Source of the DNA: Hyphococcus flavus
GTDB taxonomy: Bacteria; Pseudomonadota; Alphaproteobacteria; Caulobacterales; Parvularculaceae
Assembly (NCBI RefSeq): GCF_028748065.1
Contig: NZ_CP118166.1
Location: 3,115,501 to 3,179,500, forward strand
Direction of reading: 5' to 3'
DNA: 64,000 nt
Shown here: one piece after another, positions 43,970 to 57,137 of the stretch
How the letters are laid out: every line of letters begins with the position of its first letter
Position numbering within the stretch: position 1 is the stretch's first letter
Notes under the pieces: generated by a model
What the model was told of the DNA's origin: nothing
Database searches by the model: none
Seen by the model: only the letters and a program-made list of their open reading frames with translations
Position numbers and translations under genes: made by a program

Positions 43970-46183
43970 ATGGCCGGGGCTATCGCCGCATCAGCAGACG
44001 GATTTCTGGACCGGCTCAAGGCAGGCCGCCTGCCCGCGTCGGCAAGCGCCGTTACGCTTGACCAGGCAGGCATGACGGTGCGCGATCTCGCGGCGTTGTT
44101 CGAAAGCCAATTAATCAGCCGGCGTCTCGACCTGGAGGCGCGCAGACTTGGCGCCGAAAAGCGCGGCTTTTATTCCATCGGCTCATCGGGGCATGAAGGC
44201 AACGCCGCCGTCGCGCGAACATTTCGCGTCGATGATATGGCGTTTCTGCATTATCGCAGCGGCGCTTTTTATATCGAACGGGCGGCAAAGGTTCCTGGTG
44301 AAACGCCTGTCTGGAACATGGCGCTCTCTTTTGTTGCATCGTCTGAAGATCCCATATCCGGCGGGCGGCACAAGGTTATCGGATCAAAACCGCTCTTCAT
44401 TCCGCCCCAGACATCGACGATTGCTTCACATCTGCCGAAGGCCATGGGCACGGCTTTTTCGATTGCTTTAGCGCGCACGCAAAAGAAACACGATGCAGAA
44501 CTGCCGCATGACAGTGTTGTGCTGTGCAGTTTCGGCGATGCATCCGCCAATCATTCAACTGCAGTCGGCGCCATTAACGCTGCTGCACACACCGGCTATC
44601 GCGGCCTGCCCTTGCCGCTTGTTTTCATTTGCGAAGACAACGGCATCGGCATCTCCGTCAAAACACCTGAAGGATGGATCGCGGCCAATTACGGCAATCG
44701 CCCCGGCCTGCGTTATATTTACGGTGACGCGCGCGACCCCGTCGACGCCATGCGCGCCGCACGCGAGGCCGAACGCTGCGCCAGAGGCTCACGCAAACCT
44801 GTCTTCCTGCATCTGCGCACCGTACGTTTGATGGGCCATGCAGGCTCCGATCTGGAAAGCGGTTATCGGGATCGCGCCGAGATCGATTCAGAAGCCGATC
44901 AGGACCCGTTGTTGCATGGAGCACGCCGGCTCATTGAGACGGGCGCCATGTCTCTTGAAGATATTGAAGCATTGTACACGGATATATCGGGACGCGTGCG
45001 GCGCGCCATGGAACTGGCGACCACTCGCCCGAAACTGACGAGCGCCAGCGCCGTCACTCAGTCACTCACGCCGCCGCACCGCCCTCGCCGCTCGCTCCGG
45101 CCCGGAAGACTGCAGCCCAAGGCGCCAGACGAGACGCGCGCCAAATCAGAGCCTCAGCATATGTCTCGCCTGATCTCGCTGGCGCTTGCCGAGCAGATGG
45201 AACGGGATGCTAATGTCGTCGTGTTCGGCGAAGATGTCGGCAAAAAAGGCGGCGTTTACGGCGCGAGCGTAAAGCTGCAACCGAAATTCGGGCCGGCACG
45301 GGTTTTTGACAGCATTCTCGACGAACAATCCATCCTCGGCATGGGAATAGGGCTTGCCCATAACGGCTTTTTGCCCGTCCCGGAAATTCAGTTCCTCGCC
45401 TATGTGCATAACGCCGAAGACCAGCTTCGCGGCGAAGCGGCATCACTGTCTTTTTTCTCAAAAGGGCAATACGCAAACTCGATGGTCGTGCGTATCGCCG
45501 GGCTTGCCTATCAGAAAGGATTTGGCGGGCATTTTCATAATGACAATTCCGTCGCCGTGTTCCGCGATATACCCGGCATTGTCCTCGCATGCCCTTCGAG
45601 CGGCGCTGAAGCCGTTAAAATGATGCGAGAGGCGTTTCGGCTGGCGCGAGAGGAAGGCCGGGTTGTCGTCTTTCTCGAACCGATCGCGCTTTATGGAACC
45701 AAAGACCTTCACGATGACGGCGACGGCAAGATGACGGCTGTATTCAATGATATCGAAGGCAGCGCAGCATTCGATACTATCAATGCAATTGGCGATGGCG
45801 AAGATCTCGCTATTATCACCTACGGCAATGGGACGTATCTTTCTCAGCGCGCGTCAAAAACCCTTGCACAGAACGGCGTCAAGGTGCGCATTATCGATTT
45901 ACGCTGGCTTACGCCTCTGCCAATCGATTCCATGATCGATGCGCTCGGCCCCTGCAAGAATGTTTTGATCGTCGACGAGTGCCGCAAGACCGGATCGCCG
46001 AGCGAGGAAATCATTACCGCATTCAGCGACCGCAATCTGACTTTGAATATTTCCCGCGTTACCGGCCTCGATACATTTATCCCGCTCGGTCCCGCCGCGA
46101 ACGAAGTGCTGGTAAGCGAAAACAATATTGTTGAGGCGGCAATGGCCCTTACCTGTGCGGCCAAAAAGAAGGCGGCGGAATAA
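43970..46183 (+). CDS. fused alpha-beta E1 subunit of a 2-oxoacid dehydrogenase
   Basis: A 737 aa thiamine-diphosphate enzyme in which the alpha (about 1-345) and beta (about 395-730) chains of a branched-chain/acetoin-type E1 are joined by a Pro/Arg-rich linker. The thiamine motif GDASANHSTAVGAINAAAHT ends in the alpha part; the beta part has VVFGEDVGKKGGVYGAS, FHNDNSVAVFRDIPG and LRWLTPLPIDSM. No E2 or E3 genes accompany it. Its TAA shares one base with the ATG of a malonyltransferase-like gene, so the two are tightly coupled, and the oxoacid may feed an acyl chain starter. Confidence 0.85.
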   Translation: MAGAIAASADGFLDRLKAGRLPASASAVTLDQAGMTVRDLAALFESQLISRRLDLEARRLGAEKRGFYSIGSSGHEGNAAVARTFRVDDMAFLHYRSGAFYIERAAKVPGETPVWNMALSFVASSEDPISGGRHKVIGSKPLFIPPQTSTIASHLPKAMGTAFSIALARTQKKHDAELPHDSVVLCSFGDASANHSTAVGAINAAAHTGYRGLPLPLVFICEDNGIGISVKTPEGWIAANYGNRPGLRYIYGDARDPVDAMRAAREAERCARGSRKPVFLHLRTVRLMGHAGSDLESGYRDRAEIDSEADQDPLLHGARRLIETGAMSLEDIEALYTDISGRVRRAMELATTRPKLTSASAVTQSLTPPHRPRRSLRPGRLQPKAPDETRAKSEPQHMSRLISLALAEQMERDANVVVFGEDVGKKGGVYGASVKLQPKFGPARVFDSILDEQSILGMGIGLAHNGFLPVPEIQFLAYVHNAEDQLRGEAASLSFFSKGQYANSMVVRIAGLAYQKGFGGHFHNDNSVAVFRDIPGIVLACPSSGAEAVKMMREAFRLAREEGRVVVFLEPIALYGTKDLHDDGDGKMTAVFNDIEGSAAFDTINAIGDGEDLAIITYGNGTYLSQRASKTLAQNGVKVRIIDLRWLTPLPIDSMIDALGPCKNVLIVDECRKTGSPSEEIITAFSDRNLTLNISRVTGLDTFIPLGPAANEVLVSENNIVEAAMALTCAAKKKAAE

Positions 46184-47211
46184 TGAAAAAATCCGCTGTT
46201 GTTATTTTTCCTGGCCGGGGAACCTATGGCAAAGACGAACTCGGCTACCTTTCCCGCTATCATCCAGACAAGGCTGACTTCATCGCGGGCGTCGACCGCT
46301 GGCGCGAAGAAAACAGCCGCGAGAGTGTATCATCGCTCGACAATGCAAAAACTTATTCCGCCGCAAAACACGCTTCCAGCATCAATGCATCGCCGCTGAT
46401 ATACACATGCGCGCTCGCTGATTTCGCAACGATCAATCGCGACGAATTCGACATCGTTGCCGTCTGCGGCAACTCGCTCGGCTGGTATCTAACGCTCGCC
46501 GCTGCTGGCGCCTTGGGCGAGGACGGCGGCATCCGCGTTGTGGATACCATGGGTTCCCTCATGGAATCGGAAGGGGTCGGCGGACAACTAATCTATCCTT
46601 TCGTAGATGCCGACTGGCGTTCGTCGCGGGAAAATGAGCGCGCCATTGGAGAGGCGCTTCATGCTGGCCGCACCGAAGGCAATGCGTACCTATCAATCCG
46701 GCTTGGCGGCATGGCGGTGCTTGCCGGTGATGACGCAGGCATGGCGGCCATGGAAAAATCACTACCGCAAGCAGAAGAACGCTATCCGTTCAAATTGGCG
46801 CGCCATGCAGCGTTTCACACGCCTTTGCTAGAACATGTCTCAGTAAAAGCGTTTGATACGCTTGGCGCTGACCTTTTCCACGCCCCTTCGATACCGATGA
46901 TTGACGGACGCGGCGCAGTCTGGACATCGCACGCGACAGATGTTGACGCGCTTTATCAGTACACGTTCGGTCATCAGATTGTTGAGACGTATGATTTTTC
47001 GAAATCAATCGAGGTGGCGATAAAGGAATTCGCGCCGGACAAATTGATCCTTGCCGGACCTGGCGCAACGCTTGGCGCACCAATCGCACAGGAACTGATC
47101 CGCCACCAATGGCTCGGTCTATCGTCGAAAGCGGATTTTTCAGCGATGCAGAAAGACGATCCGTTCCTGATCGCCATGGGCCGTGATGACCAGCGAAAGC
47201 TGGCGATTTAG
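46183..47211 (+). CDS. FabD-like acyl carrier protein acyltransferase
   Basis: A 342 aa acyltransferase of the malonyl-CoA:ACP transacylase fold. The nucleophile motif reads CGNSLGWY (GxSxG, with Asn instead of the usual His before Ser), and the catalytic His is in AAFHTPLL. The N-terminal FPGRGTYGKDE replaces the classical FPGQGSQ. It is coupled to the fused E1 gene, which suggests transfer of a branched or unusual acyl group to an ACP; housekeeping fabD would normally sit with fabH/fabG. Substrate unknown. Confidence 0.75.
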   Translation: MKKSAVVIFPGRGTYGKDELGYLSRYHPDKADFIAGVDRWREENSRESVSSLDNAKTYSAAKHASSINASPLIYTCALADFATINRDEFDIVAVCGNSLGWYLTLAAAGALGEDGGIRVVDTMGSLMESEGVGGQLIYPFVDADWRSSRENERAIGEALHAGRTEGNAYLSIRLGGMAVLAGDDAGMAAMEKSLPQAEERYPFKLARHAAFHTPLLEHVSVKAFDTLGADLFHAPSIPMIDGRGAVWTSHATDVDALYQYTFGHQIVETYDFSKSIEVAIKEFAPDKLILAGPGATLGAPIAQELIRHQWLGLSSKADFSAMQKDDPFLIAMGRDDQRKLAI

Positions 47212-49042: not shown

Positions 49043-49762
49043 CTACTCCTCGCCGATATGCTTTAGCGTCTCCGGCTTCAATACTGTAATGACGCCCGCT
49101 TTTTGGCGAACGAGGCCTTCGCTCTCCCACAGCTTCAACTGGCGATTGACGTTTTCTCGCATCAAACCCGCATGGGCGCCGAGATTGCCCTGGCTCAGCT
49201 TCATGTCGATACAGAGCGAACCGTCATCATCCACATGACCGTAATATTCGCCAAGGCGCAGAAGCGCGCGCGCGAGACGCGGCGCCGCCGGCAAGGTCGC
49301 AATATCTTCCAGAAGGAAATTTGTGTGACGTAACCGCGTACACAACGCAGCGATAATCTGCAGCGCGACGCCATGATTGCGCTCAAGAAAATCGAGGACG
49401 TCGCGCCGATAAAGTCGTAAAGCTCGCGTTTCCTGAAGCGCGCTCGCCGCCGCCGACCTTGCGCCGCCGTCGAAGACGCCCATTTCGCCAAGCACTTCGT
49501 TTTCGCCCATGAAGGCAAGAACTGTTTCCTTGCCGGCGTCGGAATAGCTCGAGATTTTCACGCGGCCCGACAGGATGATATAGAGACAGTCGCTTTCGTC
49601 GCCTTGCGAGAATATCTGTTTGCGCGCGCCAAACACGACAGACTGGGCCGCATCAAGCAAGCCTTTTAGTTTTTCGTCGGTCAGGGCCTCAAAAAAGGGA
49701 TGCCTTTTCAGCTCCCAGATGAGACTGGCCGTCGCAGCAGTTTTTCCGTTCGCCCCGGACAC
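49043..49762 (-). CDS. Crp-type cAMP-responsive transcription factor
   Basis: A 239 aa Crp/Fnr-family activator. The cyclic-nucleotide pocket is conserved against E. coli CRP: Glu93 in GEMGVF, Arg102-Ser103 in ARSAAA, and a C-helix Thr147 in RHTNFLL. The helix-turn-helix GNLGAHAGLMRENVNRQLK holds R202-E203-x-x-x-R207, the CRP recognition residues for TGTGA/TCACA rather than the Fnr ExxSR set, and there is no cysteine cluster. Start is GTG 49762 with GGGAG upstream. Three perfect TGTGA-N6-TCACA boxes lie 0.3-1.0 kb upstream in front of the three microprotein genes, and a class III cyclase gene is next to them. Confidence 0.85.
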   Translation of the reverse strand: MSGANGKTAATASLIWELKRHPFFEALTDEKLKGLLDAAQSVVFGARKQIFSQGDESDCLYIILSGRVKISSYSDAGKETVLAFMGENEVLGEMGVFDGGARSAAASALQETRALRLYRRDVLDFLERNHGVALQIIAALCTRLRHTNFLLEDIATLPAAPRLARALLRLGEYYGHVDDDGSLCIDMKLSQGNLGAHAGLMRENVNRQLKLWESEGLVRQKAGVITVLKPETLKHIGEE

Positions 49763-49835
49763 CCTTATTCTCCCGTATCAGGCGGGTCCTTGAGCAGGTT
49801 CTAGCGGAAATTTCCACGATTGTCGCGCCGCAACG

Positions 49836-49865
49836 AAAAAAGCGGCGCGCTAAATAGCGCGCCGC
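49836..49865 (-). terminator. terminator of microprotein gene 1
   Basis: GCGGCGCGC-TAAATA-GCGCGCCGC (9-base arms, 49842-49865) followed by a T6 tract on the minus strand. Confidence 0.9.
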
Positions 49866-49920
49866 AGTTTGCAATAGCGGACCGGAACGGGGCGTGTCCC
49901 GGCCCCCAGGAGGGTATCGG

Positions 49921-50007
49921 CTAGCGGGTGGCCGTGAAAATGCTCGAAACACCAAGAGCCGCATTCATGCCGATAAATCCGATAAGAATGACTTCAATAA
50001 CGCCCAT
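49921..50007 (-). CDS. 28-residue hydrophobic microprotein, copy 1
   Basis: Too short for ordinary gene finders. It starts MGVIEVILIGFIG, continues MNAALG, then VSSIFTATR and TAG: a single membrane-helix-sized peptide (residues 3-24) with Glu5 and Asn15 inside and a C-terminal Arg. A ribosome site GGGAGAGA lies 3-11 bases before the ATG. Two paralogs follow at 50242 and 50536; all three have exactly 28 codons, and most base differences between them are at third positions, which is the mark of protein-level selection. Own promoter with a Crp box at 50084 and own terminator at 49842. Function unknown; a small regulator or subunit of an inner-membrane complex is a guess. Confidence 0.85.
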   Translation of the reverse strand: MGVIEVILIGFIGMNAALGVSSIFTATR

Positions 50008-50056
50008 GGTTCTCTCCCGTTTCTCGCGCCGGTCTCTCCCGACCGCCGATGATCAG

Positions 50057-50099
50057 AGAATGGCGGAGATTGAGATTTCGCGCTGTGATGGGCGTCACA
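50057..50099 (-). promoter_or_regulatory. Crp box and promoter of microprotein gene 1
   Basis: TGTGATGGGCGTCACA at 50084-50099, an exact TGTGA-N6-TCACA. If the centre is -41.5, a CATTCT hexamer occupies -12 to -7 (50062-50057) and transcription starts at A 50050, a class II activation layout shared with the other two copies. Confidence 0.8.
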
Positions 50100-50146
50100 G
50101 GCTGGCGCGATATCTTATATGGACGCTGATTCACGGCATTTATTGT

Positions 50147-50188
50147 AAAAAATCGGCGCCTCCATCCCCCAGGCTGGAAGCGCCGATT
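50147..50188 (-). terminator. terminator of microprotein gene 2
   Basis: AATCGGCGC (50151-50159) pairs with GCGCCGATT (50180-50188); a T6 tract follows on the minus strand. A second nested GC hairpin (GGGACCGG...CCGGTCCC, 50195-50224) lies between it and the stop codon. Confidence 0.85.
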
Positions 50189-50241
50189 AAGTGTGGGACC
50201 GGAGCGGGGCGATGCCCCGGTCCCGCTTGGGAACTGTTTGC

Positions 50242-50328
50242 CTATCGAGCCAGAGTGAAAAGGCTTGAAACGCCGAGGGCTGCGTTGATGCCGATGAAAC
50301 CGACCAGGATCACTTCGATAACGCCCAT
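50242..50328 (-). CDS. 28-residue hydrophobic microprotein, copy 2
   Basis: Paralog of copies 1 and 3 with the same 28-codon length: MGVIEVILVGFIG, INAALG, VSSLFTLAR and TAG. It differs from copy 1 at six residues, all conservative or at the C-terminus. Ribosome site GAGGAGAAA before ATG 50328. Own Crp box at 50405 and own terminator at 50151, so it is a separate transcription unit. Confidence 0.85.
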   Translation of the reverse strand: MGVIEVILVGFIGINAALGVSSLFTLAR

Positions 50329-50377
50329 GATGTTTCTCCTCTTTCTCTTTCGGTCTCTCCCGACCGCCGATGTTTGG

Positions 50378-50420
50378 AATTTAGAACGCCTCCCTTTTTT
50401 GCGCTGTGATGGCCGTCACA
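50378..50420 (-). promoter_or_regulatory. Crp box and promoter of microprotein gene 2
   Basis: TGTGATGGCCGTCACA at 50405-50420. With its centre at -41.5, TAAATT sits at -12 to -7 (50383-50378) and +1 is A 50371. The leader is 43 bases, as in copy 1. Confidence 0.85.
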
Positions 50421-50456
50421 CCTTGGGTTCTTTTATATAACTAATTGATTTTACTA

Positions 50457-50491
50457 TATAAAACGGCGCGCCGCTGATAGCGGCGCGCCGT
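50457..50491 (-). terminator. terminator of microprotein gene 3
   Basis: ACGGCGCGCCGCT (50463-50475) and AGCGGCGCGCCGT (50479-50491) form a 13-base stem with a GAT loop, followed by TTTTATATA on the minus strand. Another hairpin without T-tract (CGCAACGC/GCGTTGCG, 50510-50534) precedes it, right after the stop codon. Confidence 0.85.
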
Positions 50492-50535
50492 GGTCTCCCC
50501 CTGCATTGGCGCAACGCGAGGGCCTGGCGTTGCGT

Positions 50536-50622
50536 TTACCGGCTGACCGTGAAGAGGCTGGAGGCGCCAAGGGCGGCATTGAGGCCGATGAAACCGACGA
50601 GGATGATTTCGATGATACCCAT
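50536..50622 (-). CDS. 28-residue hydrophobic microprotein, copy 3
   Basis: Third paralog, 28 codons: MGIIEIILVGFIG, LNAALG, ASSLFTVSR and TAA. The residues identical in all three copies include Met1-Gly2, Ile4-Glu5, Gly10-Phe-Ile-Gly13, Asn15-Ala-Ala-Leu-Gly19, Ser21-Ser22, Phe24-Thr25 and Arg28. Ribosome site AGGAGAAAG precedes ATG 50622. It is the copy closest to the cyclase gene and has its own Crp box at 50702 and terminator at 50463. Confidence 0.85.
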   Translation of the reverse strand: MGIIEIILVGFIGLNAALGASSLFTVSR

Positions 50623-50674
50623 TGTCTTTCTCCTGTTTCTTCCGGCTTGTCGTTTTCCGACCGCCGATGAGAGA

Positions 50675-50717
50675 AAGATAGCCAAAGGCCCGATTTCAGG
50701 CTGTGATGCCCGTCACA
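50675..50717 (-). promoter_or_regulatory. Crp box and promoter of microprotein gene 3
   Basis: TGTGATGCCCGTCACA at 50702-50717; with its centre at -41.5, TATCTT occupies -12 to -7 (50680-50675) and +1 is A 50668, in the same CATCGG context as in copies 1 and 2. Confidence 0.85.
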
Positions 50718-50814
50718 GGCGTGGCGAATTCGTTAAAAAAGTCTGAATTTGCCCGAAAGACATCGCCGGAACGGCTATTTCAATAATAATTACAGTGGGT
50801 TAGAAAATTTCCGC

Positions 50815-53058
50815 CTAGGCTGAATGGCGCTTTGCCTCAGCCCGCTCACAGAAAATATCGAGCGCCGCGTCGAGACCGAAGGTATTTCCCTGTCTGCAGG
50901 CGTTGAAATGGTCGAGGGCGGCAAAGGCTTCACCCTCCTCAAGGGCTACGACACCGGCTTCAAACGAACGGCGGAATGACTGGAAATCGGACCTGGCCGC
51001 AACAGTTTCATCGCCGACCAATGCGAAGATCACCGTAGCGTCCGTGCGCCCTTTAACCGTAAAGGCGCCGAGCGGTACGGCAGCGAAATCCGGGATGCGG
51101 TCGCGAGTCTCGTCCGACATGATGATCGGCACTCCATATTGCTTGGTAAGGGACTCGAGACGAGAGGTGAGGTTCACCATATCGCCAAGCATGGAATATT
51201 CGAGGTGATCTTCTGAGCCAAAGTTGCCGACGCGCGCTTCGGCCGTATGCAGACCGATGCCGATTTTGATTTCCGGCACGGGAAGCTGTTTCTTCGAACG
51301 CCACATCTGATTAAGTTTTTCGAGCGACTGCAGCATTTGCAATGATGCGCGCGCCGCCTGTTCGGGGTGATTGTCCACATCGATCGGCGCATTCCACATA
51401 GCGGCAAGACCGTCACCCATATATTTGTCAACGAGCCCTTTGTGTTCGGTGACAATACGTGTCATCGGCGTGAAATACTGGTTCAACAACGTCGTCACAT
51501 CAGGCGGAGACATTTGTTCCGAGATCGACGTAAAGCCGCGTATGTCAGAGAAGAACGCCGTGATCTCGCGCGACTCACCTTCAAGCTTCAACAGGCTCGG
51601 ATCACGTTCTAGACGATCGAGAATGAGCGGCGACAAGAACTTGCCGAAAGCACCGCGAATAAATTTTCTTGCAATCTGCTCCTGCTGGAACATGACAACA
51701 AATGCGCCCATGAACGCAGACGTGACAACGAGCCCGGGCGATACCGGATCGATCAGCATGCGCGACGCGCTGAACGCAAGATACGTACCGGCGAAAACCG
51801 CCAGCGTCATGATCAGCCAGATCGTAAAGCCAATTGCCGCCGACATCCGCGGCAAAATAATCAGCAGGATGACTGTCACCAAAATGGCGGCGCCGATCTC
51901 AATCGGGCGCATCAGATCCCAGGCGCGGAACAGCGTGTCGCCGGAAAGCGCTTGCTCAATAACTTCCGCATGGATGTGCACGCCCGGGCGCTCATCGCCA
52001 AGCGGCGTGATGAGCACATCGCGCAACCCTTCAGCCGAGGCGCCAATCATCACGACACGCCCCTTCACAGCGTCCCTTAAGGAAGCCGCATCATTCTCAA
52101 GAACGTCAACCACAGAAAGACGCCGCTTGGCGACACTGTCAGGTTTCGAATAATGCACCCAAAGCTGGCCGTCTTCGGTGGTCGGAAAACGCAACCGGCA
52201 AAGCACAACTTCTGACACCGACTGTCCGGCGATCCCGGTCACGTGTGCGCGGCAGGCGCCGTTTTCGGCGGCGCGAACAAATTCCGGCGGCGCAAAAGAT
52301 GGATCCAGTTTCGGCGCGCCAACTCGCAATGCTTCGAGCGCGAGGCTAGGATAAATCTCTGTTCCATCACAGGCGAGCGCAATCAGCGGTACGCTGCGGA
52401 CGATGGCGTCATCGGAAAGCGCGGCGCGGGCAAAACCCTCACCACTCGCCGCCGAACGAAAAATCGGTAGCGGCGGAACAACCTGACGGAAGCTTGGCGC
52501 TACACGCGCAAGGTCCTGCGCCCGCATGCCTTGTACGCGGGAGGCTTCGAGCGCTGGTGGACAAGTTCCCGTTGACGCACCTGCTCGCGCCGTCAAATGC
52601 ATCACCGTTGGCGCGGCGGCAAGCGATGCCGCAAGCCGCGCATCATGATCGACAGCCGTCAAATCTGAACCTGAAAGCTCAGAGACGATTGGCGAAAGCA
52701 CCGGCGAATCAACCCAACTGCCAGAGACGAGATTCGGACTGGTCCTGTCTGGTTCGGCGAAGATAACGTCGAAAACGATAACCGCAGCGTCTGCAGCGTT
52801 GAGTTTATCGACGATGTCGGCAAAGCGATGGCGCGGCCACGGCCACTGCCCGTATTTTTCGAGCGCCGCATCATCTATCTCAACGATCTTGACCGGATCC
52901 TGGTCATAAGTACGCGGCGCCAAACGCTGATACTGATCAAACAACCGGTCGCGCGCGACATTTACCAGTCCGGGCTGTTGAAAGATGACGGCGAGCGCCA
53001 AAGCAGCGCCGATCAGGCCGGCGATACGTGGTCCGAAAAAACTGCGCCCGCCCATCAT
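50815..53058 (-). CDS. CHASE2-domain class III adenylate cyclase
   Basis: A 747 aa sensor cyclase. An N-terminal membrane anchor (about 10-28) is followed by a periplasmic CHASE2 domain (about 30-370, VKIVEIDDAALEKYGQWPWPR ... GRVVMIGASAEGLRD), three membrane helices (about 385-465), and a class III cyclase domain. Metal-binding Asp residues are seen in FSDIRGFTSISEQ and YMGDGLAAMW, and the Lys in DKYMGD plus the EYSMLGDMVNLTSRLE segment fit an adenylate cyclase of the IIIb type. It lies 4 bases behind the FecR gene. Its product, cAMP, should activate the Crp-type protein encoded about 1 kb downstream. Confidence 0.88.
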   Translation of the reverse strand: MMGGRSFFGPRIAGLIGAALALAVIFQQPGLVNVARDRLFDQYQRLAPRTYDQDPVKIVEIDDAALEKYGQWPWPRHRFADIVDKLNAADAAVIVFDVIFAEPDRTSPNLVSGSWVDSPVLSPIVSELSGSDLTAVDHDARLAASLAAAPTVMHLTARAGASTGTCPPALEASRVQGMRAQDLARVAPSFRQVVPPLPIFRSAASGEGFARAALSDDAIVRSVPLIALACDGTEIYPSLALEALRVGAPKLDPSFAPPEFVRAAENGACRAHVTGIAGQSVSEVVLCRLRFPTTEDGQLWVHYSKPDSVAKRRLSVVDVLENDAASLRDAVKGRVVMIGASAEGLRDVLITPLGDERPGVHIHAEVIEQALSGDTLFRAWDLMRPIEIGAAILVTVILLIILPRMSAAIGFTIWLIMTLAVFAGTYLAFSASRMLIDPVSPGLVVTSAFMGAFVVMFQQEQIARKFIRGAFGKFLSPLILDRLERDPSLLKLEGESREITAFFSDIRGFTSISEQMSPPDVTTLLNQYFTPMTRIVTEHKGLVDKYMGDGLAAMWNAPIDVDNHPEQAARASLQMLQSLEKLNQMWRSKKQLPVPEIKIGIGLHTAEARVGNFGSEDHLEYSMLGDMVNLTSRLESLTKQYGVPIIMSDETRDRIPDFAAVPLGAFTVKGRTDATVIFALVGDETVAARSDFQSFRRSFEAGVVALEEGEAFAALDHFNACRQGNTFGLDAALDIFCERAEAKRHSA

Positions 53059-53062
53059 CAGC

Positions 53063-55486
53063 TTACGGGTTTGGGACCGTTAGTGGCATGCCTTCGATCT
53101 CCCCCCGGCCCTGACCGCCTGCGGCCGTAAAGTTGAAATAGAGGTCAGCCGTTTCGCCAGCGCCGACCTGGGCGCCGTCCCGCAGCAACAACAGCATCGA
53201 CGTAATATTGTTTCCGCTGAAGTCAGATCCGTCAAAACCGAAAACACCAACGCCGGACGCTGCATCGTCAAAGCTGACCGCATTCAACATCTCGGTAAAA
53301 TTGACATTCTGCATTGAACTAAAGAGCGTCACGTCCACTGAAACATAAGACGACCCGCCGCCTAACGTTCGGTTCGCGAAATTGATATCTATTGACGCTT
53401 CAGCATCCCCAAATCCGAATTCTGTTGGTGTCTGCAGATTTGCAAAGCTGTCCGCAGGACCGTCCGACGTGCCGTCGTAAAAGAAAGTCCCTGTTCCTAG
53501 CGCGCCAGCTTGCGCCTCCAGGCCAGCAATCGTGGATATCACATTGCTGCCTGCGCGGTTTTGGTTGAACAAAAATAAATCACTGTAGAGATGGTTCCCG
53601 CCTTCATCTGCAAGGATAGATGCAATGCTAGCGCCCAGCCCTTCAATATTCTCAAAAATCGCCTGCCCTTTCAGCAAGTCAGGGTTACTGCTAAGCGGCC
53701 CCAACGGATAAAACGCGAGGCCGAAGAGCCCGCTGTCAATTGACGCCGTTTGATCAAGCGAGATGTACGTTGTTGACACCTGGCCGCCAATCGTCGGATC
53801 GGATTCAGCCGTCACGGCGATGAAGGAATTACCGCCGCCCACGGTCCGGTTGTCGAAGTTAACTTCAATCTGGGCAAAAGATACGCCGCTCAAGAATTGC
53901 GGGCTGCCCAGCGTTGATATCACGCGATCGCCGCTGCCGCTCAAGGTCGATGTCCCTGATGACATGACGCCGGCAAGCTCATTCGTCGTGGCGGCAAAAC
54001 CCAGATCAGAGTCAAAAAACGCCAACTGGCCCTCGCCGGGCAAGAATTCGAGATCAGAGGCGGCGCCGAGAGCAATATAGGTAACTCCCTGACCGTCCTC
54101 AGCGCTTACATCGATATCAACGTCAGCCGTCACCGTATCGCCAACGCCCTGACGGATGGTGAATGTGAACATCTCTGTCAGGAAGACAGCAAGATCGTTG
54201 TCGCCGTTCGCAAACGGCACGCCGTAGCTTTGCAGGACAGCTGCCAGATACGCGTTCTCAATCTCATCCGGCACGTTGAAATCAAAGTCATCAACGGTGA
54301 GATCGTTTGGATCGGATACGGAGAAATCCAGCTTGATAAATGAAGCTAACGCTTCAGGCGCGACCGTTCGGTTCGACCAGTCCACATGAATCTGGATCAG
54401 CGCCACACCCTCGTCCTGCAGGGTCTGACCTGAACCATCGTCTGTGAACAACTGCGCCGGCGCGAGGGCAAGAATGTGTCCGTCACCTGCGGCCTGCCTG
54501 CCGGCGAAGTCATCCAGCACGTCCAGCGGCAGGATTTCACCAACGTCGATCGTCATTGGCGGTGGGTCCATGGGATCCATCGGATCTTGAGGATCCTGCG
54601 GATCGTCTTCTTCGTCGTCAAACGGCTGTTCCGGTTTCTGCTCGGTCTGCTCGTCGGAACCATCGTTTCGGTCTTCAGAATTCTGCTTGTTTGTCTCCGC
54701 TTCCTGTGCGCCCTGGCCAGAATCCCCAAGCGCGTTACCGGCATATTCGAGTGCTGTGCCATCACCCTCAGGGACGACCGGCACAAACGCCTGGTAAATA
54801 CGGCGCAAGAGTTCCGGATCTGCGCGGAAAGGTTCGGACACGCCGTCAGGACCAATGCGCACGGCGAATCCCGGTCTCTTCAGAACCGCCTCGATTGCAT
54901 CGCGATTGTCGTCGGTCCAGAATTGAACAAGCCCTTTAGGTGCGAGGCCGGTATTGTCGCGAACAGGCCCCTCAAGAAGCGCGTAAACAACGCCGTCAAT
55001 CTCAGCGAGGATGACGTTCGTGCCGCGCACCCCCATGGTGACGCCGGTCTCTTGAATTTCGACTTCTGTTGCACCCGGTTCAGTGTCGCGGCCAGAGGAG
55101 AATCGAAACCCACCGCGGAAAAAGTTGACGACCCGCCGCCTACCGGCGCCGCGCGCATCAAAAAATTCGCTGATCTGCGATTCCGAATTCGGCGAAAACG
55201 TATATGTGCTCCAGTCGCAGAGCTTTAGCTGCATGTGCGAGTCGTCGCCGGTGCTGACCGTGTCGCCGCTGAACATGTCCGCGCCGCTTGCGGGCCGGAA
55301 AAGACCGTCGGCGTTTTGTCTGTCGACATTCACCAACGGGCCGACAACGGCTGTGGCGTTGCCCGCTTTTGGATCATCCGTATTGCGATCAAAACATTCT
55401 GCGGCCTGCGCCAATGACGGGGCAAGGGACAACACTGCCGCCGACGCGGCGATTTTCAGGGCGCTCATATATCTGTTGCGTGACAT
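53063..55486 (-). CDS. exported FecR-domain protein
   Basis: An 807 aa periplasmic or surface protein. After a signal peptide (ending AQAA) comes a FecR domain (about 40-165, GDTVSTGDDSHMQLKLCDWS, TGVTMGVRGTNVILAE), an acidic low-complexity linker (about 255-320, with DPQDPQDPMDPMDPPP) and a large beta-rich region with repeated FDNRTVGGGNSFIAV/FANRTLGGGSSYVSV-type motifs, probably a FecR-associated beta-sandwich repeat. It sits between the barrel gene and the cyclase gene in one operon and may carry an extracellular signal to the CHASE2 domain. Start ATG 55486 follows AGGGGGAT. Confidence 0.8.
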   Translation of the reverse strand: MSRNRYMSALKIAASAAVLSLAPSLAQAAECFDRNTDDPKAGNATAVVGPLVNVDRQNADGLFRPASGADMFSGDTVSTGDDSHMQLKLCDWSTYTFSPNSESQISEFFDARGAGRRRVVNFFRGGFRFSSGRDTEPGATEVEIQETGVTMGVRGTNVILAEIDGVVYALLEGPVRDNTGLAPKGLVQFWTDDNRDAIEAVLKRPGFAVRIGPDGVSEPFRADPELLRRIYQAFVPVVPEGDGTALEYAGNALGDSGQGAQEAETNKQNSEDRNDGSDEQTEQKPEQPFDDEEDDPQDPQDPMDPMDPPPMTIDVGEILPLDVLDDFAGRQAAGDGHILALAPAQLFTDDGSGQTLQDEGVALIQIHVDWSNRTVAPEALASFIKLDFSVSDPNDLTVDDFDFNVPDEIENAYLAAVLQSYGVPFANGDNDLAVFLTEMFTFTIRQGVGDTVTADVDIDVSAEDGQGVTYIALGAASDLEFLPGEGQLAFFDSDLGFAATTNELAGVMSSGTSTLSGSGDRVISTLGSPQFLSGVSFAQIEVNFDNRTVGGGNSFIAVTAESDPTIGGQVSTTYISLDQTASIDSGLFGLAFYPLGPLSSNPDLLKGQAIFENIEGLGASIASILADEGGNHLYSDLFLFNQNRAGSNVISTIAGLEAQAGALGTGTFFYDGTSDGPADSFANLQTPTEFGFGDAEASIDINFANRTLGGGSSYVSVDVTLFSSMQNVNFTEMLNAVSFDDAASGVGVFGFDGSDFSGNNITSMLLLLRDGAQVGAGETADLYFNFTAAGGQGRGEIEGMPLTVPNP

Positions 55487-55495
55487 GTTATCCCC

Positions 55496-56914
55496 CTAAA
55501 ACGCGAACCGTTTGGACAGCAGCAATGCTGTCTTGTGCGTCTTGTAATCGAAATTCAAAAGATTTGAGTCGACCGTCTCGTACTCATACTGAGCGATGAT
55601 ATTGATATCCTTGATGCCCTCGGGCGCGCCGGGGAAGAACAAAGACAATGGCGCGCCGACAGTGGCGCGCGCGCGATAAAGCCATTCTTCTCTGACCGTC
55701 GATGGGCTGACAAACGCATCAACGCCGTCATACTCAGACCGTTCCGCCCACGCGCCAAGCAATGTGAAGGCGCCACGGCCTATCAGCCAGCTATGCTGAA
55801 CATTAGCGCCATAACGTTCGTATGACTCACATCCCGAAGGAGCAGAAGGCGTTAGCGCCGCCGAACAAGAAGCAATTCCTTTCTTGTCCATATAAAGCCC
55901 TTCGACGGAAACCGTTTGCGTTGTGCTTAACCGCCACGCCGTGCCCGCGCGCGTACTAAGGCGCCGCCCTGAGCGTAATGCGCCAGAGCCAAAATTCGTC
56001 GTGGCGCGGAAGTCTTCATCTTCGCCGCGGAAAGAAACATAGGAACGGGTTTTGGGATTCCAGCGGTAGGCGATTTCCAGCTCACCGCCATAGGTCGCAA
56101 GATAGTCTTCACCCTCGAGCCAGTAAAACCCGCCGCGCAAACGCGGCGTGAATGACCAGTTGCCGGAATACCAGGTGCCGCCAAGCGCTATTGTCGTAGC
56201 GTCAAGATCAAGCCTGTCCACTTCATGCTTGTCGGAATGATAGTAGGTGGCTTCCGCATGTAGCGTATGACCTTCCTGCGTCCCAAGGTCATGAACAAGC
56301 CGTCCTTGTGCGGATAATACATAAGCCCAATCGCCGTCGCGCGCCTCAGCCGGTAAGTTGCCCAAGAAAGACTGTACCATGCCGCTCGACGGCGCCTGGT
56401 TGCGGTTGCGGTCCCAATCGATCCCTGTGGTCAGCGTCAGCGACCCGCGCGTCTGGCGTTGTTCGTACTTTATCCGGTTGAGATAAGTCTCAGCTTCCGC
56501 GCGAAGTGGCGCCGGCAACATGTTGCTATCAAGCGCGAGCTCAAGTTCGTAACGCGCGCGATCAAAAAGCCCGAGGCGGTAAAGAACAAGGCCATAGAGA
56601 ACGCGCACGTCATGCATGGCCGGATCGATCAACAAAATCCGCTCAAGCGTGGCGCCAGCTTCCTTCAAGTCGCCAGCCGCGATTTGCTGACGTGCATAAG
56701 CGATGTTGAGTTGAATGTTCTCCGGCGCAGCAAGAACCTGCTCAAACGGTATGGTGATCGCTGTGCGATCAGCCCTCTCCGCCTCACGCCGCTGGTTTTC
56801 GAGCAAATCCCGTTCAATCGCTTCACGCGCCGACTCTTCCGGCTCCTGCGCGAGTGCGGCGGAACTTAAGACCAACAATGATAACGCTGATCCGGCCCAA
56901 TATTTTACCGGCAT
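55496..56914 (-). CDS. TPR / outer-membrane beta-barrel protein (SLAM-like, DUF560 type)
   Basis: A 472 aa outer-membrane protein: signal peptide (ALAQ), TPR-like helices (about 60-150, NIQLNIAYARQQIAAGDLKEAG and RVLYGLVLYRLGLFDRARYELE split over two repeats) and a barrel of about 14 strands ending in a Phe (LLLSKRFAF). Layout resembles surface lipoprotein assembly modifiers, but a lipoprotein client is not obvious; the FecR protein downstream is the natural partner. Start ATG 56914 has GAGGGGCGAG upstream. First gene of the cyclase operon. Confidence 0.75.
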   Translation of the reverse strand: MPVKYWAGSALSLLVLSSAALAQEPEESAREAIERDLLENQRREAERADRTAITIPFEQVLAAPENIQLNIAYARQQIAAGDLKEAGATLERILLIDPAMHDVRVLYGLVLYRLGLFDRARYELELALDSNMLPAPLRAEAETYLNRIKYEQRQTRGSLTLTTGIDWDRNRNQAPSSGMVQSFLGNLPAEARDGDWAYVLSAQGRLVHDLGTQEGHTLHAEATYYHSDKHEVDRLDLDATTIALGGTWYSGNWSFTPRLRGGFYWLEGEDYLATYGGELEIAYRWNPKTRSYVSFRGEDEDFRATTNFGSGALRSGRRLSTRAGTAWRLSTTQTVSVEGLYMDKKGIASCSAALTPSAPSGCESYERYGANVQHSWLIGRGAFTLLGAWAERSEYDGVDAFVSPSTVREEWLYRARATVGAPLSLFFPGAPEGIKDINIIAQYEYETVDSNLLNFDYKTHKTALLLSKRFAF

Positions 56915-57137
56915 ATCTCTCGCCCCTCGACATTGTGCGCAACGCAAATGCGGAAAAAATCACCGCACCGCAACAAACGCAAAAACCCCAGTCCCAAGCT
57001 GATGAACGCTGTCATGCGCTCAGCTATGCAATTTTCAGTCTTAACTCGACTATGCCCTTTGACACTCTTTACTAGCAACTCTTTTTTAGCTTCGCTGAAG
57101 AGGTTTATTTGTAATAAAACTGACGCGTTTACACGGC

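What the first reader, a model, noticed from the sequence alone, without database searches (positions are those of the whole stretch)
49921..50622. Three tandem 28-codon genes for near-identical hydrophobic microproteins
Seen: three short frames of exactly 28 codons on the minus strand (49921-50007, 50242-50328, 50536-50622) with their own ribosome sites. Between copies, most substitutions are synonymous (e.g. Ser21 is TCG, TCA and TCC; Gly10 is GGA, GGT and GGT; Asn15 AAT, AAC and AAT) while the peptide keeps Gly10-Phe-Ile-Gly13, Asn15-Ala-Ala-Leu-Gly19 and Phe24-Thr25. Inference: translated, selected single-helix membrane peptides. I recognise no described family.
Basis: partly seen in the sequence, partly recalled or inferred. 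Interest (0 to 1): 0.9.

Follow-up and report, generated by a model that had tools for sequence, protein, structure and literature searches.

The report
cAMP-switched tandem membrane microprotein genes
Three tiny tandem genes, each encoding a 28-residue membrane-spanning peptide, appear to be switched on by a cyclic-AMP receptor and sit between the cyclic-AMP-making enzyme and that receptor, so they probably feed back on or carry out this signalling circuit.

Summary
The three 28-codon ORFs are real and under purifying selection: 16 boxed copies from 9 genomes give pN/pS 0.30 in frame; the window copies differ by dN 0.10-0.15 against dS 1.2-2.5. Each ORF is a separate transcription unit: a perfect TGTGA-N6-TCACA Crp-type box, a -10 exactly 21 bp after it in 17 of 18 copies (class II spacing), 5' stem-loop, SD, ORF and terminator. 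Only 8 such boxes exist in the 3.47-Mb genome; three are here. The units lie between a CHASE2 cyclase (with FecR and TPR partners) and a Crp-type regulator, an order seen in nine genomes of the genus and one of another. In nine further genomes a different CHASE2 cyclase goes with a boxed relative. Matches were found only in Parvularculaceae; none in Pfam (one peptide) or NCBIfam (four). Eight transcripts also carry a covarying 3' hairpin with an invariant GCCCCG loop, so an RNA role is open. Best reading: a cAMP-Crp-induced single-helix microprotein acting as feedback or output of the circuit. Translation, target and sign are inferred.

The parts
50702..50717 (-). Crp-type box of unit 1, TGTGACGGGCATCACA
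   Evidence: distance to the -10 gives class II (-41.5) spacing
50675..50680 (-). -10 element of unit 1, TATCTT; predicted start of transcription about 50668
   Evidence: prediction
50536..50622 (-). microprotein gene 1, MGIIEIILVGFIGLNAALGASSLFTVSR
50463..50491 (-). intrinsic terminator-like hairpin of unit 1
   Evidence: 3 found in the region; shuffles mean 1.4
50405..50420 (-). Crp-type box of unit 2, TGTGACGGCCATCACA
50378..50383 (-). -10 element of unit 2, TAAATT; predicted start about 50371
   Evidence: prediction
50242..50328 (-). microprotein gene 2, MGVIEVILVGFIGINAALGVSSLFTLAR
50195..50224 (-). 3' UTR hairpin of unit 2 with GCCCCG loop, covarying stem
50147..50188 (-). terminator-like hairpin plus T run of unit 2 (read by eye and by folding; not called by the scan)
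50084..50099 (-). Crp-type box of unit 3, TGTGACGCCCATCACA
50057..50062 (-). position of the -10 in unit 3, CATTCT (the one exception to TA at this place); predicted start about 50050
49921..50007 (-). microprotein gene 3, MGVIEVILIGFIGMNAALGVSSIFTATR
49879..49905 (-). 3' UTR hairpin of unit 3 with GCCCCG loop
49842..49865 (-). intrinsic terminator-like hairpin of unit 3
49043..49762 (-). Crp-type regulator (cNMP-binding plus Crp HTH)
50815..53058 (-). CHASE2-domain class III cyclase, most likely an adenylate cyclase
53063..55486 (-). FecR-domain protein, likely partner of the cyclase
55496..56947 (-). TPR protein next to it on the same strand

Best explanation
The three ORFs are tandem, separately transcribed, Crp-activated genes for a single-helix inner-membrane microprotein of about 27-30 residues. 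Seen in the sequence: coding selection, Crp-type boxes with fixed promoter spacing, terminator-like hairpins, and a recurrent position between a CHASE2 cyclase and a Crp-type regulator. Inferred: when the cyclase senses its signal, cAMP-Crp switches the microgenes on. The peptide enters the inner membrane, with its conserved Glu5, Asn15, Gly19 and Ser21-Ser22 available for helix contacts, and docks on the transmembrane part of the cyclase (or of its membrane partners), damping it. That would be a negative-feedback loop like that of MgrB on PhoQ, with extra copies adding dose. Steps not shown: translation, cAMP dependence, membrane insertion, the binding partner, and the sign of the effect.
For: Selection. 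Promoters: TA of the -10 exactly 21 bp after the box in 17 of 18 type-A copies, in 9 of 9 boxed type-B copies (G026's box is 2 bp shorter), and in 2 of 2 units of G053. Only 8 perfect boxes in the genome, 3 here. Order cyclase - microgene(s) - Crp in nine genomes of the genus, the own one counted, and in G031 (in G025 across a contig break). In eight genomes a second cyclase type (about 630 aa) has a boxed microgene 1.1-3.2 kb past the cyclase gene; in G011 the microgene is on another contig. Co-occurrence in the genus: of 18 genomes with a Crp match at E<=1e-40, 16 have a boxed microgene, G026 has it with the shortened box, and in G024 none was found; of the 10 without a match, one (G010, 88% complete, with a type-B cyclase) has it. 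The cyclase keeps FSDIRGFT, DKYMGDG and VNLTSRLE, and 21 of its 29 solved matches are named adenylate or adenylyl cyclases. The regulator matches solved Crp proteins and has RENVNR in its HTH. Of 19 family genomes that I picked as holding the window's cyclase type, 10 have the microgene, 6 a related calcineurin-like phosphoesterase on the cyclase contig, 3 neither, none both.
Against: No direct test of interaction or effect. Cyclases of 610-690 aa related to type B in G000, G020 and G027 have neither box nor microgene in the 13-15 kb read (L103-L105), so the link is not universal. A paralogous branch (group 2) sits without a Crp palindrome beside histidine-kinase and TonB-receptor genes. The regulator's best NCBIfam model, CRP, scores 82 bits against a cut-off of 266, so its ligand is inferred. 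The microgene/phosphoesterase contrast follows genus borders, and the own genome has six calcineurin-like hits. Conserved RNA hairpins may mean that part of the function lies in the RNA. Unit 3 has a poor -10. Predicted folds leave the 16 bases before ATG unpaired with mean probability 0.50, 0.22 and 0.35 in units 1, 2 and 3.
Confidence: 0.42

Rival explanations
1. Output, not feedback: the microprotein is an effector of the cAMP regulon that tunes another membrane target (a transporter, protease or envelope complex), as AcrZ or KdpF are held to do.
For: The family also occurs at histidine-kinase/TonB-receptor loci with other promoters, so the target need not be the cyclase. Type-B loci hold other boxed genes.
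Against: Recurrent linkage to two cyclase types rather than to one effector gene.
Confidence: 0.27
2. Dual-function RNAs: the ~200-nt transcripts act by base pairing (GCCCCG loop in the 3' hairpin) and the peptide is a second product, as in VcdRP of Vibrio cholerae.
For: In 8 of 18 copies the 3' hairpin covaries: 13 cells changed on both sides (0 of 500 shuffles as high), 5 of 10 pairs with such a change (37 of 500 as high), and the loop GCCCCG is invariant. A 5' stem-loop is also seen (weaker).
Against: The ORF itself is under clear amino-acid selection with free synonymous sites. The number of pair types in the 3' hairpin is not unusual (230 of 500 shuffles). No target was sought or found; pairing between sibling transcripts was weaker than in shuffles. 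Hairpins may only be stabilisers or processing sites.
Confidence: 0.17
3. Type I toxin-like membrane peptides (as DinQ, TimP, and, recalled, TisB, Ibs and Ldr), tandem copies being common in some of them.
For: Short, hydrophobic, tandem, intergenic. DinQ is a toxic single-TM peptide with antisense RNAs (search listing); TimP a toxic small membrane protein (search listing).
Against: No sigma-70-like site on either strand in 49750-50830, so no sign of an antisense RNA; but the scan also missed the units' own promoters, which lack a -35, so this is weak. The 5' UTR is short (43-46 nt). Crp-type boxes and position recur over species.
Confidence: 0.08
4. Not translated; conserved only as DNA or RNA.
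For: Strong RNA structure around the ORF.
Against: Frame-specific pN/pS 0.30 against 1.1 and 1.6; SDs; homologous peptides with other UTRs in type-B and group-2 loci.
Confidence: 0.03

Closest known systems
MgrB (47 aa) and PhoQ/PhoP in E. coli (PMC8404706, abstract and section list seen)
   Same: A small membrane protein in the regulon of the system, its TM region contacting the membrane sensor; negative feedback.
   Different: 28 aa with hardly any extramembrane part, tandem copies, partner would be a cyclase not a kinase; feedback here is inferred. Sequences were not compared directly.
VcdRP/VcdP of Vibrio cholerae (PMC8672173, abstract and section list seen)
   Same: A CRP-controlled short transcript with a 29-aa ORF; a section heading says four consecutive cytosines are needed for its RNA part.
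   Different: vcdRP is repressed by CRP and VcdP binds citrate synthase; here the boxes are at the activating class II distance and the peptide is a predicted TM helix.
CHASE2 adenylate cyclase + FecR + TPR clusters (Campylobacterota, PMC9239204; Sinorhizobium CyaD1/D2/K and Clr, PMC13001267 and PMC5498481; passages seen)
   Same: Same cyclase type; FecR/TPR partners in the cluster or regulon; Crp-family output in Sinorhizobium.
   Different: None of the passages seen mentions a microprotein gene. The Campylobacterota clusters mostly hold a phosphodiesterase, as do several other Parvularculaceae here.
KdpF, AcrZ, DinQ (search listings only; sizes partly recalled)
   Same: Very small single-helix regulators or toxins.
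   Different: Other hosts and partners; sequences not compared.

Membership tests
Small feedback membrane protein of a signalling system (MgrB-like working) | Gene activated by the output regulator of the system | tested here: inconclusive
   Crp-type boxes at fixed -41.5 spacing; not shown by experiment
Small feedback membrane protein of a signalling system (MgrB-like working) | Single TM helix | tested here: met
   Hydropathy only; 28 aa leave room for one helix
Small feedback membrane protein of a signalling system (MgrB-like working) | Binds and alters the membrane sensor | not testable with these tools
   Needs two-hybrid or pull-down and a cAMP assay
MgrB sequence family | Match to a curated family model | tested here: inconclusive
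   No match of any family: one peptide in Pfam at E<=0.001, four in NCBIfam at E<=1; I did not check that these libraries hold an MgrB model
Type I toxin | Antisense RNA antitoxin overlapping the unit | tested here: inconclusive
   0 sigma-70-like sites on either strand, but the scan missed the units' own promoters too
Type I toxin | Toxic when expressed | not testable with these tools
   -
Dual-function sRNA | Conserved RNA structure outside the ORF | tested here: met
   3' hairpin covariation in 8 of 18 copies, chosen by eye as one lineage
Dual-function sRNA | Base-pairs with target RNAs | tested here: inconclusive
   Only sibling pairing tried, negative in 4 of 4 genomes; no target search
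Class II Crp-dependent promoter | Box centred about 41.5 bp upstream of the start, overlapping the -35 (definition recalled) | tested here: met
   By sequence: 17 of 18 type-A copies with TA at the fixed place; start sites predicted, not mapped

The most novel reading that the evidence does not exclude
A new family of 27-30-residue single-helix microproteins acts as the built-in damper of membrane CHASE2 adenylate cyclases, made under cAMP-Crp control from tandem, structured, dual-function RNAs, and in this genus stands where related bacteria keep a phosphodiesterase. It would be, as far as my searches show, the first microprotein brake on a class III cyclase.
Probability: 0.27. Interest if true: 0.82.

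Novelty: new variant of a known kind. Interest (0 to 1): 0.62.

Why it matters
Small membrane proteins are mostly known as modulators of kinases and transporters (recalled). No title or abstract start in the listings describes one for a bacterial adenylate cyclase; searches listed nothing. The listings showed 15 of 20, 10 of 53 and 10 of 233 papers, so this is not a full check. A self-contained circuit (sensor cyclase, Crp, one to three microgene copies) that recurs in ten genomes would make two open matters testable: what the transmembrane part of class III cyclases is for, and how cAMP signalling is damped. The 28-residue size also makes it a minimal case of TM-helix recognition.

Tried and rejected
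Rfam: nothing reached a gathering score; best atpB RNA, 21.1 bits against 37.4, over part of unit 3, taken as chance. Plasmid collection: no match. Sibling-RNA pairing between the first-type G-run and the second-type C-loop: weaker than shuffled controls in 4 of 4 genomes tried (cofolding does not model loop-loop kissing). Tree of 18 units: 2 of 15 inner branches well supported, so copy history rests on the 3' UTR types, not on the tree. 5' stem in single-sequence folding: z below -1.8 in 14 of 18 copies, near zero or positive in G003_1, G020_1, G025_1 and G031_1 (mononucleotide shuffles). Structure prediction was not run: the peptides are under 30 aa and no complex prediction is offered. Paper searches without results.

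Full report
What is there. Three minus-strand ORFs of 28 codons lie at 50536-50622 (copy 1), 50242-50328 (copy 2) and 49921-50007 (copy 3). Copies 1 and 3 are 79% and 82% identical to copy 2. The whole genome (G000, 3.47 Mb, one contig) holds these three, a more distant copy at C1:1787521 (58% identity) and one weak hit at E=0.26. The named relatives of the neighbouring Crp gene are Parvularculaceae, Marinicaulis flavus among the closest; the organism of the window itself is not named.

Coding selection. From loci of 10 genomes I took 18 ORFs that have a Crp-type box; the 16 of exactly 28 codons (9 genomes; two 29-codon copies dropped) were compared pairwise by Nei-Gojobori counting. In frame, pS is 0.49 and pN 0.146 (ratio 0.30), with pN<pS in 120 of 120 pairs. 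The two other sense frames give ratios 1.10 and 1.58, the antisense frames 1.26, 0.61 and 1.91. Between the three window copies dN is 0.13, 0.15 and 0.10 against dS 1.2, 1.8 and 2.5. Pairs are not independent, but the contrast between frames is plain. Invariant in 21 aligned boxed peptides: Glu5, Phe11, Ile12, Leu18, Gly19, Ser21, Ser22. Hydropathy fits one transmembrane helix.

Each ORF is its own transcription unit. Upstream of every window copy lies TGTGAC-N4-ATCACA (three sites on the coding strand, each also matched on the other strand with 3 mismatches; 6 matches against a chance mean of 0.44). The palindrome TGTGA-N6-TCACA occurs at 8 places in the whole genome, three of them here (the reversed control pattern occurs once per strand). 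In 18 type-A copies a hexamer starting TA begins exactly 21 bp after the box in 17; the exception is window unit 3, CATTCT. That places the box at about -41.5, the class II position (recalled from E. coli Crp). Of the five other boxes in the genome I looked at four in both directions, and two have TA at that distance in one direction; the fifth was not fetched. The predicted 5' UTR is 43-46 nt. Terminator-like hairpins follow units 1 and 3 (3 in the region against 1.4 in shuffles); unit 2 ends in a hairpin with a T run that the scan did not call.

The neighbourhood looks like one cAMP circuit. Upstream on the same strand are a TPR protein, a FecR-domain protein and a CHASE2-domain class III cyclase; downstream is a Crp-type regulator. 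Of 29 distinct solved chains matching the cyclase at E<=1e-8, 21 are named adenylate or adenylyl cyclases, and it keeps FSDIRGFT, DKYMGDG and VNLTSRLE (that these are the catalytic motifs is recalled). The regulator matches solved Crp/Fnr proteins, E. coli CAP among them; its best NCBIfam model is CRP but far under the cut-off, 82 against 266 bits. Its HTH reads RENVNR, which fits the Arg-Glu...Arg of E. coli Crp that reads TGTGA (recalled). That cAMP is the ligand is thus inferred. In nine genomes of the genus, the own one counted, and in one genome of another genus (G031), one to three boxed microgenes lie between orthologues of this cyclase and this Crp (in G025 across a contig break, where a second copy is cut by the contig end and was not used).

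A second cyclase type has it too, in part. Shorter CHASE2 cyclases (about 630 aa) lie in a different locus with M48-peptidase, VWA and other genes. In nine genomes I found a boxed microgene of the same family with its -10 again 21 bp after the box: G005, G006, G009, G010, G012, G016, G019, G026 on the cyclase contig, 1.1-3.2 kb past the cyclase gene, and G011 on another contig. G026 has a box 2 bp shorter, and in G016 the ORF runs on past 60 residues. Against this, related cyclases of 610-690 aa in G000, G020 and G027 have neither box nor microgene in the 13-15 kb read (L103-L105); the one of G004 is cut by the contig end (L106); those of G024 and G001 were not read. G053, of another genus, has two more boxed units, but its peptides match only weakly (E 0.08 and 0.096; none at 0.01). 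In the genus, 18 of 28 genomes have a Crp match at E<=1e-40. Of these, 16 have a boxed microgene, G026 has it with the shortened box, and in G024 none was found. Of the 10 without a match, one (G010, 88% complete) has one.

Taxonomic reach. With the profile A2, 29 of 62 family genomes match at E<=0.01, 27 of them among the 28 of the genus. The profile was built from members; the single-peptide search (29 of 100 at E<=0.1, own genome counted) is the independent one. In 398 genomes drawn from the order 28 match at E<=1e-4, all in this family; in 385 from the class, only the own genome (profile A1). No Pfam match for one peptide and no NCBIfam match for four.

A paralogous branch (group 2). Relatives of 28-39 residues without a Crp palindrome (MGVxEIxLIxFIAxN...) sit near a hybrid histidine kinase, a receiver-kinase or a TonB-dependent receptor (Pfam on L042, L043, L047 and L052; the other loci judged by eye from ORF starts) and often near a soluble protein of about 130 aa. 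A GTGA-N6-GTGA direct repeat stands upstream in four loci. This supports a wider role of the family at membrane signalling loci and weakens an exclusive link with cyclases.

Phosphoesterase contrast. From I picked, by E-value and ORF length, 19 family genomes with the window's cyclase type. Ten have microgenes; six have a related calcineurin-like phosphoesterase (E<=1e-10) on the cyclase contig, seen directly after the cyclase in the five that I read; three have neither; none has both. A further genome with a cyclase fragment (G034) has the phosphoesterase. In Campylobacterota most such clusters also hold a phosphodiesterase (PMC9239204, passage). The contrast follows genus borders and the own genome has six calcineurin-like hits, so it is a hint only.

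RNA features. The 3' UTRs suggest two types kept across species: a first type (G000 copy 1 and the first copies of G027, G022 and G003; 4 of 18) with a GCAACGC/GCGTTGC stem and GCAGGGGGAGA, and a second type (8 of 18, window copies 2 and 3 among them) with a CCGG-rich stem. Two more first copies share only the G-run, and four copies (G007, G020 twice, G031) were not placed. Window copy 3 is thus most simply a duplicate of the second type. In the 8 second-type hairpins 92.5% of 80 cells pair (0 of 500 shuffles as high), 13 cells show changes on both sides (0 of 500), 5 of 10 pairs have such a change (37 of 500), further pair types are not unusual (230 of 500), slid versions fall to 33-54%, and the loop GCCCCG is invariant (the register was set by eye on these sequences). 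The 5' stem, in 11 of 18 copies used, has weaker support: one of five pairs compensatory (402 of 500 shuffles as high), covariation score reached by 14 of 500. An RNA function alongside the peptide is therefore open.

Mechanism. Seen in the sequence: selection on the peptide, Crp-type operator and fixed promoter geometry, genomic linkage. Inferred: cAMP-Crp activates the units; the peptide enters the inner membrane; it binds the transmembrane part of the cyclase or its partners; it damps the cyclase. I give membership in the cAMP circuit about 0.85 and damping of the cyclase about 0.4. Rivals are an output peptide on another membrane target, a dual-function RNA, and a type I toxin.

Known comparators. 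MgrB works in this way on PhoQ (PMC8404706, abstract). VcdRP is a CRP-repressed RNA with a 29-aa peptide acting on citrate synthase (PMC8672173, abstract). Sinorhizobium CHASE2 cyclases feed Clr and use an outer-membrane partner (PMC13001267, PMC5498481, passages). Nothing that I saw of these mentions a cyclase-linked microprotein.

Noticed in passing
L042, L043, L044, L045, L047, L048, L051, L052 (group 2 loci; own genome C1:1787521); L116, L121, L129, L131: Paralogous 28-39-aa microproteins without a Crp palindrome, near histidine-kinase or TonB-receptor genes and often a ~130-aa soluble protein; a GTGA-N6-GTGA direct repeat stands upstream in the last four loci named.
   Followed up: partly
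L109, L110, L111, L112, L114: In other genera the CHASE2 cyclase is followed by a calcineurin-like phosphoesterase in the place where the microgenes sit here; none of the genomes had both at the cut-offs used.
   Followed up: partly
L096-L102, L107: Second CHASE2 cyclase locus with several Crp-type boxes (mostly TGTGCG or TGTGAG types), many with a -10-like TA at 21 bp, near M48-peptidase, VWA and CsgG-like genes: perhaps a compact local regulon.
   Followed up: partly
window 50195-50224 and 49879-49905: Covarying 3' hairpin with an invariant GCCCCG loop in second-type transcripts; first-type transcripts carry GGGGGAGA. Sibling pairing was not supported by cofolding.
   Followed up: partly
window 46183-47211: 342-aa protein without a Pfam match at E<=0.001, next to a fused E1 dehydrogenase (43970-46183); its homologue lies near the cyclase-Crp locus in L034-L039.
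   Followed up: no
G000:C1 482828, 1535020, 1954157: Three more CHASE2 proteins in the own genome; the one at 1954157 has neither Crp box nor microgene within the 15 kb read (L103).
   Followed up: partly
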